Shown piece after piece: positions 17,088 through 22,112 of a DNA stretch of 64,000 nucleotides. Position 1 is the stretch's first letter, and the number at the start of each line of letters is the position of its first letter. The position numbers were made by a program, and so were the translations under genes. The notes beneath the pieces were generated by a model. It made no database searches and was not told where the DNA came from. It was given only the letters and a program-made list of their open reading frames with translations. The stretch is taken from positions 1-64,000 of the forward strand of contig NZ_JAUTDN010000019.1 of NCBI RefSeq assembly GCF_030646155.1, given 5' to 3'. Source of the DNA: Conexibacter sp. CPCC 205762. Lineage in GTDB: Bacteria > Actinomycetota > Thermoleophilia > Solirubrobacterales > Solirubrobacteraceae.

Positions 17088-17598
17088 AGAGGACGGTCGC
17101 GGCCTCGGCGACGGTCTCGTCCGGGTCGAGCCTGAGCGAGCCGTCGGCGATCCCGTCCTGGAGCAGCTGCTGGAGCGGGGCGGTGAAGGCGGGCTGGGTC
17201 AGGACGCCGTCGCCGCTGGCCGCGGCCGCGCCGCGCTCGGGCTCGGCGGCGGCGTCCGCTGCCGGGGCGTGGAAGATCTCGTCGCGCTCGGCGGCGTCGA
17301 GCGCGGCCAGCAGCGCGAGGTTCTGCTCGGTCACGCCGCAGAGCGCGGTCAGCGCCAGCGCGAGCCGCGCGCGGCCGTCGCCGGAGGCCGTCAGCGGCGG
17401 CTCCAGCGCACGCCGGTAGTCGCCCTCCAGCAGCGTCCCGAGGGCGCCCAGCACGTGCTCGCGGCGGACGCCGCGGCGGTGCAGCGTCATCCGCGAGACG
17501 CCGAGCGCGCCGGCGAGCCGCTCCATCGTCGCCGCCTCCCAGCCGTCGCGCTCGATCGCGTCGCGGGCGCGCCGCAGCGCCTCCTCGTCGCCGATCAC
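16978..17598 (-). CDS. TetR/AcrR-family regulator
   Basis: A 206-residue regulator with a short N-terminal helix-turn-helix (ATMERLAGALGVSRMTLHRR, about res 24-43) and an all-helical ligand domain containing a Pro/Ala-rich insert around residues 115-130. GTG 17598 is favoured because it overlaps the stop of the ABC ATPase gene (GTGA); TTG 17601 is an alternative. The HTH is slightly atypical (HRRGVRREHV in place of YxHFxxKEEL). It is the second gene of an operon with the ABC ATPase, and the palindrome in front of that operon is the likely operator for autoregulation. Confidence 0.8.
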   Translation of the reverse strand: MIGDEEALRRARDAIERDGWEAATMERLAGALGVSRMTLHRRGVRREHVLGALGTLLEGDYRRALEPPLTASGDGRARLALALTALCGVTEQNLALLAALDAAERDEIFHAPAADAAAEPERGAAAASGDGVLTQPAFTAPLQQLLQDGIADGSLRLDPDETVAEAATVLFNLLSWTYRHLRLGHHWPPERAAAAVTRRALRSVSA

Positions 17599-18404
17599 CA
17601 ATGCGCCTCGGCGCGCGCCAGCCAGCGGCCGCCGACGCGGTCGACGCGGACCGGCGTGTCGAACGTCGCGGTCAGGTTCGCGCCGCTGATCGTCTGCTCG
17701 GCGGCCCCGGCCGCGACGACCGCGCCGTCGCGCAGCAGCAGCGCGTGGGTCGTCGACGGCGCCAGCTCCTCGACGTGGTGGGTGACGGTGACGGTCGCCG
17801 TCTCCGGCTCCTCGCGGGCGATCGTCGCGACCGCCTGCAGCAGCGCCTCGCGGCCGGGCAGGTCGAGGCCGGTGGCGGGCTCGTCGAGCAGCAGCAGCGC
17901 GGGGCGGCGCATCAGCGCCCGCGCCAGCAGCACGCGCTGGCGCTCGCCCTGGCTGCAGGCGTCGTAGGGGCGGTCGGCCAGCTCGCCGCAGCCGAACCGC
18001 GCCAGCAGCCCGCTCGCGCGCTCGCGCTCGTCGTCGCCGAGCGCGCCGGGCCGCAGCGCGATCGTCGCGGTCGCGCCGGTCAGCACGACCTGTTCGGCGG
18101 TCAGCCGCTGGCGGAAGGAGCGGCTCGTTCTCGCCTCGACGAGCCCGATCCGCCCGCGCAGCGCGCGCAGGTCGACGCGGCCGAGCCGCTCGCCGAGCAC
18201 GTCGGCGGTGCCGTCGCTGGGGTGGTGGACGGCGGCGGCGACGTTCATCAGCGTCGTCTTGCCGGCGCCGTTGGCGCCCAGCAGCGCCCAGTGCTCGCCG
18301 GGGTTGACGGTCCAGTGGACGTCGCGCAGCAGGTGGCGCTCACGCTGCTGCTCCGCGTCCCAGCGCCACAGCGAGACGCCGGTGAGGTCGAGAGCTCGTG
18401 TCAT
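17595..18404 (-). CDS. ABC-type ATPase (orphan ATP-binding protein)
   Basis: A 269-residue nucleotide-binding protein with all motifs: Walker A GANGAGKTTLMN (about res 42), signature CSQGERQRVLLARALM (about 150), Walker B ALLLLDEPATGLD (about 172) and the H-loop VTVTHHVEEL. It resembles the YlmA/ModF-like group of ATPases that occur without a permease gene. No membrane component is nearby. The start at 18404 lies 12 bp after the GTTACA/TGTAAC palindrome. It forms an operon with the TetR gene. Substrate is unknown. Confidence 0.9.
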   Translation of the reverse strand: MTRALDLTGVSLWRWDAEQQRERHLLRDVHWTVNPGEHWALLGANGAGKTTLMNVAAAVHHPSDGTADVLGERLGRVDLRALRGRIGLVEARTSRSFRQRLTAEQVVLTGATATIALRPGALGDDERERASGLLARFGCGELADRPYDACSQGERQRVLLARALMRRPALLLLDEPATGLDLPGREALLQAVATIAREEPETATVTVTHHVEELAPSTTHALLLRDGAVVAAGAAEQTISGANLTATFDTPVRVDRVGGRWLARAEAHW

Positions 18405-18416
18405 ACGAGCAACGAT

Positions 18417-18432
18417 GTTACATGGGTGTAAC
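18417..18432. promoter_or_regulatory. Perfect palindromic operator GTTACATGGGTGTAAC
   Basis: GTTACA and TGTAAC form a 6-4-6 inverted repeat 12 bp upstream of the ABC-ATPase start codon. Its place in the promoter region of an operon that encodes a TetR regulator suggests autorepression by that regulator. Confidence 0.65.
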
Positions 18433-18575
18433 AGCAGTTGGCGGCATGCCGCGTCCTTAGCCAGCGCTTATGCAGCGCTGAGCTTTCACTGATGGCCGGA
18501 TGAGTGGATGCAGGGCACGGGGTGGGCTAAGCCGCACGGCCGAACCCGCTCCGTCCAACTTCCCCCAGGAGCCTT

Positions 18576-18603
18576 CGAACGCCCGGTCAACGCCGGGCGT
18601 TCG
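18576..18603 (-). terminator. Strong hairpin terminator after the aminotransferase-fold gene
   Basis: CGAACGCCCGG (18576-18586) and CCGGGCGTTCG (18593-18603) form a perfect 11-bp stem with a 6-nt loop, 4 bp past the stop of the gene ending at 18608. Confidence 0.8.
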
Positions 18604-18607
18604 TGCG

Positions 18608-20188
18608 TCAGGCGGCGTGCTCGACGAGCGAGCCGGATGCTTCCGCGTCGAAGACGCCCGGCTGCTGCGCCTGCGAGCGGGCGGCGGCGCGCGGTGCGGG
18701 CGGGCCGTCCAGCTCGGCGTCGAAGGGGCGGCCGGCGGCGCTGCGGGCGTCGGCGTCGAACGGGCGCCCGCCGCCGGTCGCGCTGCGGGCGGGGCGGCGG
18801 CTCTGCTCGACCCAGCCGTCGCCGTCGTCCCACAGCTCGGCGCGGCGCTCGCGGCCGCGCAGGCCGGGCGTCGGCTCGGCGAGGCGCGCGCCCGCGCGGA
18901 CGCTCGGCGTCGCGATCTGGTCGCCGCCGAGCGGCAGGCCGCCGTTGGCGGTGACCGGCAGCTCGCGCTCGTCGCTGTCGAACGGCTCCGGCTCGGCGGG
19001 CAGCCGGGCCGGGCGCGCGGCCGGGTCGGCGCCCGCGGCCTTCGCCGCCTGCGCGAGCGCGCGGGCGGCGTCTCTCAGCTCGCTCTTGGAGTGCGACGCC
19101 ATCACCGCCAGGCGCAGGCCGGTCTCCGCGGCCGGCACGGCCGGCGGCAGCAGCGGCTGCGCGAAGACGCCGCGGTCGAGCGCCTTCTCGATCGTCCGCA
19201 GCGTCGCGGCGGCGTCGCCGAGCGGCAGCGTGACGATCGGCGTGTGCGGGCTGTGGGCGACGGCGAAGCCGGCCGCGAGCAGCTCGTCGCGCAGCAGCGC
19301 GGCGTTCGCCTGCAGCTTCTCGACCCGTCGCGGCTGCTGCTCCAGCAGCGACAGCGCGGCGAGCGCGCCGGCGACCGCCGGCGGGCCGGGCGCGGTCGAG
19401 TGCAGCAGCGTGCGGGCCGCGCAGGCGAGGTACTTCGCCATCTGCTGGTCGCAGGCGACGTAGGCGCCGTAGGAGCCGAGCGCCTTGCCGAGCGAGCCGA
19501 CGATCGCATCGACGCCGTCCTCGACGCCGGCTTCGGCGACGGCGCCGCGGCCGCCCGGGCCGAGCGTGCCGACGCCGTGCGCCTCGCCGACGACCAGGCG
19601 CACGTCCCAGCGGGCGGCGAGGTCGACCAGCTCGTGCAGCGGCGCGACGTCGCCGTCGCGACCGAAGACGCCGTCGGTGACGATCAGGCTGCCGCGGCCG
19701 TCGGCCTCGCGCAGGCCCCATTCGAGGTGCTCGGCGTCGCCGTGCTCGTAGACGAAGACGTCGGCGCGCGAGAGGCGGCAGCCGTCGATCACGGCGGGGT
19801 GGCTCAGCTCGTCGCAGAAGACGACGTCGCCGGCGCGCGCGAGCGCCGAGACGACGCCGACGTTGGCGAGGTAGCCGGAGCCGAACAGCAGCGCGGCCTG
19901 GCGCTGCTGGAAGGCGGCGAGGCGCTCCTCGAGGCGGCGGTGGATCGTCATCGTGCCCGAGACGGCGCGCGAGCCGCCGGCGCCGACGCCCCAGCGCATC
20001 GCGGCGTCGGCCGCGGCCTCGCGGACGGCGGGATGGTCGGCGAGACCGAGGTAGTTGCTGGAGCACAGCAGCAGGACGGGCTTGCCGTCGAGCACGACCC
20101 GCGGTCCCTGCGGGCCACTGACCATCCGCGTGCGGCGGGCAAGCCCAAGCTGTTCCAGCTCGTCCAGTCGCGCCTCGATCTCGATCAT
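18608..20188 (-). CDS. Alpha-oxoamine synthase-like PLP enzyme (AONS/KBL fold) with long C-terminal tail
   Basis: A 526-residue protein. Residues 1-385 are fold type I PLP domain of the 8-amino-7-oxononanoate synthase/2-amino-3-ketobutyrate ligase family: NYLGLADHPAV, GAGGSRAVSGTM, DELSHPAVIDG and the PLP-binding Lys in GSLGKALGSYGAYV (about res 235). The PLP-ring Asp in the family motif DEAHG is replaced by Gly201 (VGEAHGVGTLG; codon GGC at 19586-19588), while His204 is kept. Residues about 390-526 are a disordered tail with repeated RPFDAD/RPFDAE/VFDAE units, absent from ordinary AONS (about 390 residues). ATG 20188 was chosen because it starts at IEIEARLDEL, the usual N-terminus. No biotin genes are adjacent. 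Confidence 0.85.
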   Translation of the reverse strand: MIEIEARLDELEQLGLARRTRMVSGPQGPRVVLDGKPVLLLCSSNYLGLADHPAVREAAADAAMRWGVGAGGSRAVSGTMTIHRRLEERLAAFQQRQAALLFGSGYLANVGVVSALARAGDVVFCDELSHPAVIDGCRLSRADVFVYEHGDAEHLEWGLREADGRGSLIVTDGVFGRDGDVAPLHELVDLAARWDVRLVVGEAHGVGTLGPGGRGAVAEAGVEDGVDAIVGSLGKALGSYGAYVACDQQMAKYLACAARTLLHSTAPGPPAVAGALAALSLLEQQPRRVEKLQANAALLRDELLAAGFAVAHSPHTPIVTLPLGDAAATLRTIEKALDRGVFAQPLLPPAVPAAETGLRLAVMASHSKSELRDAARALAQAAKAAGADPAARPARLPAEPEPFDSDERELPVTANGGLPLGGDQIATPSVRAGARLAEPTPGLRGRERRAELWDDGDGWVEQSRRPARSATGGGRPFDADARSAAGRPFDAELDGPPAPRAAARSQAQQPGVFDAEASGSLVEHAA

Positions 20189-20225
20189 GGTGAGAGGCAC
20201 GTTATGTGCACCGTCGGACGGCACT

Positions 20226-20246
20226 TTTCCCGCACGTAGCGGGAAA
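20226..20246. promoter_or_regulatory. Dyad TTTCCCGC-ACGTA-GCGGGAAA in divergent promoter region
   Basis: An 8-bp perfect inverted repeat (20226-20233 and 20239-20246) between the start of the PLP enzyme gene (20188) and the divergent gene starting at 20439. It could be an operator or a 5' hairpin. The rest of the 250-bp gap holds no gene. Confidence 0.5.
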
Positions 20247-20438
20247 GTTCGTGACGGGCGCCGCATCCCGAACGGTTGTTCGACACAATTCGACCCTCAG
20301 GCTCGACCTGACCGTGAGGAATCGGCGGTTTTGGCCGGATGTTCGGCCGGCTTGCGCGCCAGGAGCGGCATGCGCCCCTATCGCCGTGAGGGATCGAGTG
20401 GGACCATCGATTTACCTGGAACTGGCAGGAGGTCCGAG

Positions 20439-20963
20439 TTGGCACAGGCCGAGGGAACGGCCGCGCCCGCGGCGCAGGTCATCCCGATACATCGAGCACG
20501 CGAGCGCGACGAGCTGGACTGGGTCCGGCGCTACGACCGTGCCGCGCAGCGGATCGTCGACGGCGAGGTGCTCGCGGCCGCCCGCTTCCTGCGCCCGCGC
20601 GGCTGGCGCGCCTTCGCCTGCGCGCTGACCGGCCGGCCGGCCTCCGTCGCGCGGCGGGCGGCGCGGCGCCCGCGCCGGCTGCGGCTGCCGGAGGCGCTGC
20701 TGGTCGCCGTCACCTCCGATCGCGTGCTGCTGCTGCAGGCGCGCAGCGCGCCCGGCGGCGGCCCGGTGCCGGTCGCGGCCGCGGTGCTCGCGAGCTGGGA
20801 GCGAGCGCGAACCGAGATCACGGTCACGCCCGACGTGCACGGCACGCGGCTGACGCTGCGGCCGCGCGGCGGCGGACGCGTCGAGCTGCTCGGGCCGCCC
20901 GACGCGCTCAGCGCGCGTGTCGTGACGGCGTTGCGGCAGCCGGAGCTGGTTCCGAGCGTCTAA
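20439..20963 (+). CDS. Hypothetical protein, possible PH-like beta domain
   Basis: A 174-residue protein starting at TTG 20439, 7 bp after the clear ribosome-binding site AGGAGG; an upstream in-frame ATG at 20370 lacks one. After a short leader (QVIPIHRARERDELDWVRRY) there is a basic stretch (RRAARRPRRLRLP) and a beta-rich domain: LLVAVTSDRVLLLQAR, ERARTEITVTPDVHGTRLTL, GGGRVELLGP. That strand order resembles small bacterial PH-like domains, but the match is weak. No catalytic or membrane motif is present. A GC-rich hairpin (GGCCGGCGCTGCGCCGGC) follows the stop. Confidence 0.65.
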   Translation: MAQAEGTAAPAAQVIPIHRARERDELDWVRRYDRAAQRIVDGEVLAAARFLRPRGWRAFACALTGRPASVARRAARRPRRLRLPEALLVAVTSDRVLLLQARSAPGGGPVPVAAAVLASWERARTEITVTPDVHGTRLTLRPRGGGRVELLGPPDALSARVVTALRQPELVPSV

Positions 20964-21016
20964 GAGACGCGGCGCGGCCGGCGCTGCGCCGGCTCAGCGC
21001 CGCGCGCCGCGCGCGC

Positions 21017-21811
21017 TCAGCGCCCGCGCCACTGCGGCGGGCGCTTCTCGGCGAAGGCGGCGAGGCCCTCGCGCAGGTCCTCGGACAGGAACGCTTCGCG
21101 GCGGGCGGTGTCGAGGACGGCGGCGGTCTGGTCGTCGAGGTCGCCGGCGGCGGCGCAGACGGCGGCGATCGCGGCCTTGTTGCCGCGCAGCGACAGCGGC
21201 GCGTTGGCGGCGATCTCGACCGCCAGCGCGAGCGACGCGGACTCCAGCTCCTGCGCCGGCACGACCTCGTTGACGAGGCTCCAGCGCTCGGCCGTCTCGG
21301 CGTCGACGCGGCGGCCGGTGAGGAACAGCTCGCGCGTGCGGGCGGCGCCGATCGCGGTCACGAAGCGGTTGATGCCGCCGTGGTTGTAGACGACGCCGAG
21401 CTTCGCCGGCGGCATCCCCAGCTGCACGCCCGCGGCGGCGATCCGCAGGTCGCAGGTGATCGCCAGCTCCAGCCCGCCGCCGATCGCGTAGCCGTTGAGC
21501 GCCGCGACGACCGGATACGGGTAGTCGGCGACGGCCGCCAGCGCGGCCTGGAAGGGATGGCCGTCGCTGTCGTCGTAGCCCTCGCTCTCCAGCGCGCCGA
21601 TGTCGTAGCCGGCGCAGAAGGCGCGGCCCTCGCCGGTCAGCAGCACGCAGCGGGCGTCGATCCGCCCGAGCGTCGCGGCCAGCGCGTCGAGCAGCGGCGC
21701 GTCGAGCGCGCCCCGCTTGGCGGGGTTGGAGATCGTCAGCCGCGCGACGCCGGGCGCCGGCTCGTCGATCAGCAGGCGCCCGCCGGCGGGCTCGTCGTCG
21801 GGGGCGGCCAT
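21017..21811 (-). CDS. Enoyl-CoA hydratase/isomerase family protein
   Basis: A 264-residue crotonase-fold enzyme. Oxyanion-hole elements are GRAFCAGYDIGALE (about res 63-76) and NGYAIGGGLELAITCDLRIA (about 105-124). At the position of the first catalytic Glu of hydratases the sequence has PPAKLGVVYNHGG, so residues differ from standard hydratase chemistry. A decarboxylase or isomerase role is possible. The C-terminal FAEKRPPQWRGR is standard. It ends an operon whose first gene is a biotinyl carrier (8-bp gap), hinting at carboxylated acyl-CoA metabolism. The exact reaction is not assignable. Confidence 0.87.
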   Translation of the reverse strand: MAAPDDEPAGGRLLIDEPAPGVARLTISNPAKRGALDAPLLDALAATLGRIDARCVLLTGEGRAFCAGYDIGALESEGYDDSDGHPFQAALAAVADYPYPVVAALNGYAIGGGLELAITCDLRIAAAGVQLGMPPAKLGVVYNHGGINRFVTAIGAARTRELFLTGRRVDAETAERWSLVNEVVPAQELESASLALAVEIAANAPLSLRGNKAAIAAVCAAAGDLDDQTAAVLDTARREAFLSEDLREGLAAFAEKRPPQWRGR

Positions 21812-21819
21812 CGGAGCGG

Positions 21820-22032
21820 CTACTCCAGCACGATCAGCGTGTCGCCCTCGGAGACCGCCTGGCCCTCGGCGCAGCGGATCTCCTTGACGGTGCCCGGATC
21901 CTCCGCCTCGACGGGCATCTCCATCTTCATCGACTCCAGGATCACGACCGTGTCGCCCTCGTCGATCGTGTCGCCGACCTCGACCTCGACTCTCCAGACG
22001 GTGCCGGTGATGTGAGCCTCGACGTCAGCCAT
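21820..22032 (-). CDS. Stand-alone biotin/lipoyl attachment domain protein (biotin carboxyl carrier)
   Basis: A 70-residue single-domain carrier. The modified Lys is in ILESMKMEMPVEAED, with the MKM motif diagnostic of biotin, flanked by the two beta-hairpins VEVEVGDTIDEGD and EGQAVSEGDTLIVLE. The start at 22032 is preceded by GGAGGTCCCCC. Such small carriers serve actinobacterial acyl-CoA carboxylases in which carrier, carboxylase and carboxyltransferase are separate chains. No biotin carboxylase gene is in the window. The carboxyltransferase at 42.6 kb is a possible partner but lies 20 kb away. Confidence 0.9.
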   Translation of the reverse strand: MADVEAHITGTVWRVEVEVGDTIDEGDTVVILESMKMEMPVEAEDPGTVKEIRCAEGQAVSEGDTLIVLE

Positions 22033-22112
22033 GGGGGACCTCCTGGAAGTGCGCGGATGGGGACGGCGCCGCGGTCCGGCCCGCCGGAGCGGCACAATAG
22101 CCGCCGGAGCCG

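What the first reader, a model, noticed from the sequence alone, without database searches (positions are those of the whole stretch)
18608..20188. AONS-like enzyme without the PLP-ring aspartate
The DEAHG motif that holds the pyridine nitrogen of PLP reads GEAHG (Gly201, codon GGC at 19586-19588), while the Schiff-base Lys and the stacking His are intact. Loss of this Asp normally cripples alpha-oxoamine synthases, so the protein may have a different reaction, or be inactive, or the base may be a sequencing change.
Basis: partly seen in the sequence, partly recalled or inferred. Interest (0 to 1): 0.5.

Follow-up and report, generated by a model that had tools for sequence, protein, structure and literature searches.

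The report
Orphaned biotin enzyme losing its catalysis
This soil bacterium kept one gene (bioF) of a dismantled biotin-making operon, and the kept protein has lost a key catalytic residue; related bacteria show the same stranding followed by loss of enzyme residues several times over, which suggests that the protein now does another job.

Summary
In detail: residue 201 is Gly (codon GGC, minus strand 19588-19586); the 110 other aligned BioF rows with a letter there all have Asp. It is not an isolated oddity. The gene is a bioF left behind after bioB and bioD disappeared on both sides; the genome has no bioB, bioD or bioA over cut-off but has a BioY biotin importer. Such orphan bioFs arose several times in this order (a single clade is rejected, p-AU 0.0004). 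They depart at the same otherwise invariant active-site positions, while all 89 non-orphan rows readable at six catalytic residues keep all six. Of this protein's 17 departures, 16 recur in other orphan lineages; only D201G is private. Four other orphans and one half-dismantled case lost the Schiff-base lysine, and the one close pair of these is under purifying selection. Most likely it is a retained BioF-derived protein that no longer makes KAPA, is probably catalytically dead here, and is kept for an unknown role that needs the fold. Plain decay of this copy, and an error at this base, are not excluded.

The parts
18608..20188 (-). orphan bioF, 526 aa; AOS core about residues 1-390, then a long tail
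   Evidence: ORF; best NCBIfam family TIGR00858 bioF 382.6 bits, below its cut-off 426.45; AlphaFold core well predicted, residues 396-526 under pLDDT 50
19586..19588 (-). codon 201, GGC (Gly) in place of the PLP-ring aspartate (E. coli D204)
18611..19018 (-). C-terminal tail, residues 391-526, ending FDAEASGSLVEHAA
   Evidence: predicted disordered; end motif common in BioFs of the order
20199..20218 (-). promoter-like element TCCGA-N9-TANNNT inherited from the bioB leader
   Evidence: found before 19 of 20 orphan-type bioFs tested; 57 bases 20189-20245 are 89% identical to the bioB leader of C. arvalis
20226..20246 (.). inverted repeat TTTCCCGC-N5-GCGGGAAA upstream of bioF
   Evidence: sequence; a similar repeat precedes bioB in C. 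arvalis
20189..21016 (.). interval where relatives hold bioB; no bioB remnant found
   Evidence: tblastn with E up to 1 found none in 18300-21100
18405..18607 (.). interval where relatives hold bioD; no bioD remnant found
   Evidence: synteny; tblastn
21017..21811 (-). crotonase (enoyl-CoA hydratase family), conserved neighbour upstream
   Evidence: PF00378; synteny
21820..22095 (-). small biotin/lipoyl carrier protein with ESMKM motif, conserved neighbour
   Evidence: PF00364; translation
17595..18404 (-). ABC transporter ATPase, conserved neighbour downstream
   Evidence: PF00005; synteny

Best explanation
The gene is the bioF of a former bioB-bioF-bioD operon. In this lineage bioB and bioD are gone from either side of it (shown by synteny), and biotin is probably imported by BioY (inferred from gene content). 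No longer needed to make KAPA from a pimeloyl thioester and alanine, the protein changed at positions of the amino-acid and PLP site (N47S, S179G, R349L, T352A, R359G in E. coli numbering) and lost D204, which holds the pyridine nitrogen. It keeps the AOS fold, the Schiff-base lysine and a conserved C-terminal end. Most likely it no longer catalyses the AONS reaction and has little or no PLP chemistry left, but it is kept behind the old bioB leader for another role that needs the fold and perhaps the tail, such as a structural or regulatory partner (inferred). Other orphan BioFs of the order went the same way, some losing the lysine itself.
For: Synteny with bioB and bioD missing; no bioB, bioD or bioA over cut-off in the genome, BioY present. 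Orphans depart at a median of 18 of 119 operon-invariant sites against 1 in operonic rows, seen again in 36 fresh rows. 16 sites recur in at least 3 of 4 lineages, simulated mean 2.2, maximum 9. 16 of this protein's 17 departures recur elsewhere, P 1e-6. Lys lost in L157, L158, L159, L165 and in L086; L159-L165 omega 0.13 against 0.23 for their crotonase. Solirubrobacter orphans: median omega 0.15, lowest of 11 genes of the locus. G000-G004 omega 0.30, below all 10 neighbours. Old bioB leader at the bioF start. Fold intact in the model.
Against: On the G000 tip alone the private nonsynonymous to synonymous count is 22.5 to 21.5, more than in bioF of three relatives (p 0.0025) though not more than in G000's own pooled neighbours (p 0.37): this copy may be decaying. 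Lys235, His130, His204 and Arg359 are kept. 11 of 20 orphans keep all six catalytic residues, so a changed but active enzyme is possible for those. 63 of 221 genomes of the order have no close bioF at all, so the gene can be lost. No partner or activity is known.
Confidence: 0.58

Rival explanations
1. Plain decay: with the operon gone, bioF of this genome is a relic under relaxed selection, and D201G is one missense step on the way to a pseudogene.
For: Raised nonsynonymous share on the G000 tip compared with bioF of G003, G004 and G005; loss of a catalytic residue kept in all 110 other rows; 63 of 221 genomes of the order have no close bioF.
Against: Open frame of 526 aa with the conserved C-terminal end; 16 of 17 departures fall in the set that other orphans also change, and 70 of 119 invariant sites never depart in 20 orphans; G004 tip 8 to 25, like the operonic G003 7 to 22.
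Confidence: 0.24
2. A changed alpha-oxoamine synthase that uses another amino acid or acyl thioester, still by PLP chemistry in spite of the missing aspartate.
For: Lys, both His and R361 equivalents kept; six Solirubrobacter-type orphans share one new pocket and keep all six catalytic residues under strong purifying selection; segment around residues 343-364 resembles serine palmitoyltransferase 3a2b.
Against: The aspartate is said to hold the protonated pyridine nitrogen that alpha-proton abstraction needs (PMC6148460); R349 equivalent, which holds the substrate carboxylate in SPT, is lost too; Lys-less orphans cannot work so.
Confidence: 0.13
3. The base at 19587 is a sequencing or assembly error and the protein has Asp; the gene is still a stranded bioF with a changed pocket.
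For: D201G is the only one of 17 departures not seen in another orphan lineage; one base separates GAC from GGC; no reads are available.
Against: Departures seen in one lineage only are common, 20 of 42 sites; most compared neighbour genes of G000 carry few private changes (2 to 9.5 nonsynonymous in five of six; g16 has 20.3), so the assembly does not look error-prone.
Confidence: 0.05

Closest known systems
8-amino-7-oxononanoate synthase BioF (TIGR00858; E. coli BioF, PDB 1BS0)
   Same: Orthologue of the operonic bioF at the same chromosomal place; same fold, Lys, His residues
   Different: No bioB, bioD or bioA; lacks D204, R349, N47 and S179 equivalents; below the curated cut-off (382.6 of 426.45), although some second-type BioFs beside bioB are below it too
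Chlamydia BioF_1 (PMC3459881, passages)
   Same: A BioF-like protein kept in species without biotin synthesis, with fewer BioF active-site residues
   Different: There a separate gene beside priA, with the catalytic lysine conserved; here the operon's own bioF, stranded in place, several times
SPTLC1/LCB1, non-catalytic subunit of eukaryotic serine palmitoyltransferase (PMC6148460, passages)
   Same: AOS-family protein without the residues for PLP chemistry, kept for a structural role
   Different: A heterodimer subunit; no partner is known here, and this copy still has its lysine
M. tuberculosis BioF2 (Rv0032; PMC12910592, passages)
   Same: Annotated BioF that does not complement a bioF mutant
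   Different: Has an extra N-terminal domain and is most similar to serine palmitoyltransferases; bioF1 and bioA are present in that genome

Membership tests
BioF / AONS (TIGR00858) | curated score cut-off 426.45 bits | tested here: not met
   382.6 bits; C. arvalis operonic copy 453; but second-type BioFs beside bioB in Solirubrobacter also score 384-409, so the cut-off alone does not decide
BioF / AONS (TIGR00858) | catalytic residues H133, D204, H207, K236, R349, R361 | tested here: not met
   HGHKLR: D204 and R349 lost, four kept
BioF / AONS (TIGR00858) | rest of the KAPA-to-biotin pathway in the genome | tested here: not met
   no bioA, bioB, bioD over cut-off; genome 90.9% complete
BioF / AONS (TIGR00858) | KAPA synthase activity | not testable with these tools
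   needs an assay
alpha-oxoamine synthase superfamily, PLP fold type I | fold and sequence family | tested here: met
   PF00155 183 bits; Foldseek target TM 0.9 to ThAOS, SPT, KBL, BioF
alpha-oxoamine synthase superfamily, PLP fold type I | Schiff-base lysine and pyridine-nitrogen aspartate | tested here: not met
   Lys235 present, aspartate absent
LCB1-type non-catalytic AOS subunit | loss of the PLP lysine | tested here: not met
   Lys235 kept in this protein; lost in L157, L158, L159, L165, L086
LCB1-type non-catalytic AOS subunit | a catalytic AOS partner | tested here: inconclusive
   an SPT-like AOS with DEAHG lies about 62 kb away on the same contig; interaction untested

The most novel reading that the evidence does not exclude
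BioF of this order has a second, non-catalytic role, for example as a partner or regulator acting through its fold and its conserved C-terminal end. When the rest of the operon is lost, selection keeps the protein for that role and lets the catalytic site go, so that BioF pseudoenzymes have arisen several times independently; the window's Gly201 protein is one of them.
Probability: 0.33. Interest if true: 0.8.

Novelty: new variant of a known kind. Interest (0 to 1): 0.6.

Why it matters
It offers a natural series, from working BioF through stranded copies with a changed pocket to copies without the PLP aspartate or lysine, within one bacterial order and largely at one chromosomal place. That makes it testable how an enzyme can lose catalysis and still be kept. 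It also warns that 'bioF present' does not mean biotin synthesis when auxotrophy is predicted from genomes.

Tried and rejected
Rejected: one odd residue in an otherwise working BioF (16 other departures); one ancient orphan paralogue (one clade rejected; same chromosomal place); remnants of bioB or bioD in the gaps (none in 18300-21100 at E up to 1); the C-terminal end as a motif shared with other proteins (the 12 'non-BioF' hits lie at the bioF places of their loci). Not settled: what the other role is, and whether this particular copy is kept or decaying.

Weak points of my tests. Orphans were defined by the absence of bioB and bioD from the fetched flank; L112 has no upstream flank and L046 only 392 bases downstream. 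L086 (bioD kept) was set apart, counted as operonic and as orphan. In one search I had wrongly paired L021 with L047; L021 has its own bioB and bioD. In the second sample 24 of 60 loci repeated earlier rows and were dropped; its rank test (p 7e-5) left out L154 (12 departures, upstream flank 5 bases too short for my rule) and counted L212 as orphan (8 departures, bioA beside it, no bioB or bioD in the flank, canonical pocket); elsewhere L212 is with the non-orphans. The site-overlap null treats all 119 sites as equally free; 6 of 31 between-lineage pairs have p over 0.05. Recurrent sites lie near the six catalytic residues only a little more than expected (9 of 23 against 24 of 119, p 0.016). 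The promoter pattern was written after looking at orphan leaders, so its orphan count is not independent; in the bioB control the L036 row had a wrong slice and L020 and L050 appear to be one genome, leaving 14 of 18 (printed 16 of 20). Omega is a simple Nei-Gojobori count in very GC-rich DNA. The residue equivalences R349 = SPT Arg378 and R361 = Arg390 are inferred from spacing; roles of N47 and S179 are recalled. Most orphans come from draft or metagenome assemblies.

Full report
The observation. The gene at 18608-20188 (minus strand, 526 aa) reads GEAHG where BioF-type enzymes read DEAHG; codon 201 is GGC. Aligned to E. coli BioF, G201 is D204. In the related serine palmitoyltransferase (SPT) the equivalent Asp231 hydrogen-bonds the protonated pyridine nitrogen of PLP, said to be required for alpha-proton abstraction (PMC6148460, passages). 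Over both samples 110 rows have Asp, the window has Gly and one row has a gap. That the change cripples 5-aminolevulinate synthase is recalled; I saw only the title of that paper (Gong 1998) in a reference list.

What the gene is. The best NCBIfam family is bioF at 382.6 bits, below the curated 426.45. The nearest named relatives are Conexibacter. In the window and G004 the same neighbours stand around bioF, but bioB and bioD are missing; in G001 the crotonase-glycosyltransferase block lies the other way round, and bioF is followed by the same ABC ATPase; in G002 bioF lies at a contig end and bioD is missing after it. Whole-genome searches find no bioB, bioD or bioA over cut-off in G000, G001, G002 and G004; G000, G001 and G004 have the biotin importer BioY. 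G000 is 90.9% complete and G002 77%, so genes elsewhere could be missed.

How the locus was cut. The 57 bases before the ATG (20189-20245) are 89% identical to the leader of bioB in C. arvalis, so what looks like the old bioB leader now touches the bioF start codon. In G001 a ribosome-binding site and first codons like those of bioB still stand before bioF, and G004 has yet another junction: separate deletions, or one followed by further loss. An element TCCG[AG]-N9-14-TANNNT lies within 100 bases upstream of 19 of 20 bioFs tested (19 orphans and L086; the miss is L086; shuffles mean 0.12, maximum 2), before bioB in 14 of 18 usable operonic loci, and before none of the 20 operonic bioF rows (19 genomes). 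A deletion of bioB behind its promoter would give this without selection; that the element is kept suggests the gene is still expressed.

Other orphans. The window and 75 deduplicated rows fell into 14 orphans and 61 operonic rows, with L086 (bioD kept, bioB gone from the locus) apart. The genomes of 12 orphans of both samples have no bioB over cut-off (G000, G001, G002, G004, G017, G066, G067, G161, G185, G190, G232, G177); 9 of these 12 have BioY, the exceptions being G002, G190 and G232. Nine further genomes (G018, G061-G065, G068, G189, and G069 with L086) have a bioB elsewhere, and of these only G062 has BioY. G018, G061-G065 and G069 also have a second BioF. On trees without the pocket columns the label needs at least 4 changes (first sample) or 5 (both samples), of which starred branches force 3, and one clade is rejected (p-AU 0.00035 and 0.00045). 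Loss of the whole gene happens too: 63 of 221 genomes of the order had no match at E 1e-80.

The shared pattern. At 119 sites at least 97% conserved in operonic rows, orphans depart at a median of 18 (7 to 21) and operonic rows at a median of 1 (maximum 10, the distant second-type copy L118; p 1.6e-9). In the second sample L157, L165, L158, L159, L155 and L154 depart at 23, 21, 20, 19, 17 and 12 sites, L212 (bioA beside it) at 8, and 29 operonic rows at a median of 2, maximum 12. Sixteen sites depart in at least 3 of 4 lineages (simulated mean 2.2, maximum 9 in 20000 draws). Of the window's 17 departures 16 lie among the 48 sites that depart in 18 orphans outside its own lineage; only D201G does not; 70 of the 119 sites depart in none of 20 orphans. 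Of six catalytic residues (H133, D204, H207, K236, R349, R361) 9 of 20 orphans have lost at least one (10 of 21 with L086) and none of the 89 other rows readable at all six. The lysine is Gly in L159 and L165, Ser in L157, Thr in L158 and Met in L086; the tree needs at least 3 changes for this.

Kept or decaying. The two Lys-to-Gly copies have omega 0.13 (pS 0.24, pN 0.035) against 0.23 for their crotonase, and the 12 reading frames checked have no stops in the aligned part. Other Lys-less pairs are too far apart (pS 0.44 to 0.58) for a like statement. The Solirubrobacter-type orphans have a median omega of 0.15 over 15 pairs, the lowest of 11 genes of that locus. Between G000 and G004 omega is 0.30, below all 10 neighbours (0.32 to 0.62). 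On the G000 tip alone, private nonsynonymous to synonymous changes are 22.5 to 21.5 (G004 8 to 25, G003 7 to 22, G005 4 to 19), more than in the other three genomes pooled (p 0.0025) but not more than in six neighbour genes of G000 pooled (p 0.37). So 'kept' is well supported for some orphan clades; for this copy decay remains a real rival.

Structure and tail. AlphaFold gives an intact AOS core for the window protein, with residues 396-526 under pLDDT 50, and mean 93.5 for the core of L159. Foldseek's best solved structures are ThAOS, SPT, KBL and BioF. The tail often ends in FDxE...AA: 86 of 109 complete C-termini end in AA (18 of 20 orphans, 68 of 89 others), and 49 of 109 have [FY]Dx[EHD] in the last 30 residues; the five second-type copies L118, L119, L169, L204 and L212 lack both. 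The Lys-less copies keep it. Degron or docking site are guesses.

Mechanism. Shown by sequence: stranding of bioF, repeated change of the same positions, loss of Asp here and of Lys elsewhere, purifying selection in two orphan groups. Inferred: that the AONS reaction is lost, that PLP chemistry is weak or absent in this copy, and that a role other than KAPA synthesis keeps the protein. A new substrate pair is more likely for the Solirubrobacter-type orphans, which keep all six catalytic residues and share one new pocket, than for this protein.

What is in print. My searches (only the listed part of each was seen) brought up no account of stranded, Lys-less or Asp-less bioFs in these bacteria; subscription papers are mostly not held. 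The nearest precedent is Chlamydia BioF_1, kept in species without biotin synthesis and predicted to have another reaction (PMC3459881, passages). M. tuberculosis BioF2 does not complement a bioF mutant (PMC12910592, passages). Changing one pocket residue of ThAOS widens its substrates (PMC11906848, passages).

Noticed in passing
18611-19018; tails listed: Long low-complexity C-terminal tail with FD-x-E...AA end, kept in operonic, orphan and Lys-less BioFs of the order and absent from second-type BioFs; function unknown.
   Followed up: partly
20226-20246: Perfect 8-base inverted repeat TTTCCCGC-N5-GCGGGAAA just upstream of the bioB-type promoter element, with a similar repeat before bioB in C. 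arvalis: perhaps an operator of the biotin locus.
   Followed up: no
21017-22095: A 91-aa biotin/lipoyl carrier protein and a crotonase stay next to bioF in operonic and most orphan loci examined.
   Followed up: partly
L105:18177-19496 (same contig as the window, beyond its end): The only other close AOS of the genome; best NCBIfam family is serine palmitoyltransferase (390 bits, cut-off 640), with DEAHG intact.
   Followed up: partly
L060:8001-9290: Orphan bioF that keeps Lys but has lost both histidines and R361 equivalents (H133G, H207D, R361H).
   Followed up: partly
L159, L165 (genomes G190, G232): Genomes with a Lys-less bioF and neither bioB nor BioY over cut-off; how they obtain biotin is unexplained (93% and 86% complete).
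   Followed up: no
20346-20963: Open reading frame on the plus strand between crotonase and bioF, no Pfam match, with a similar protein at the same place in G004.
   Followed up: partly
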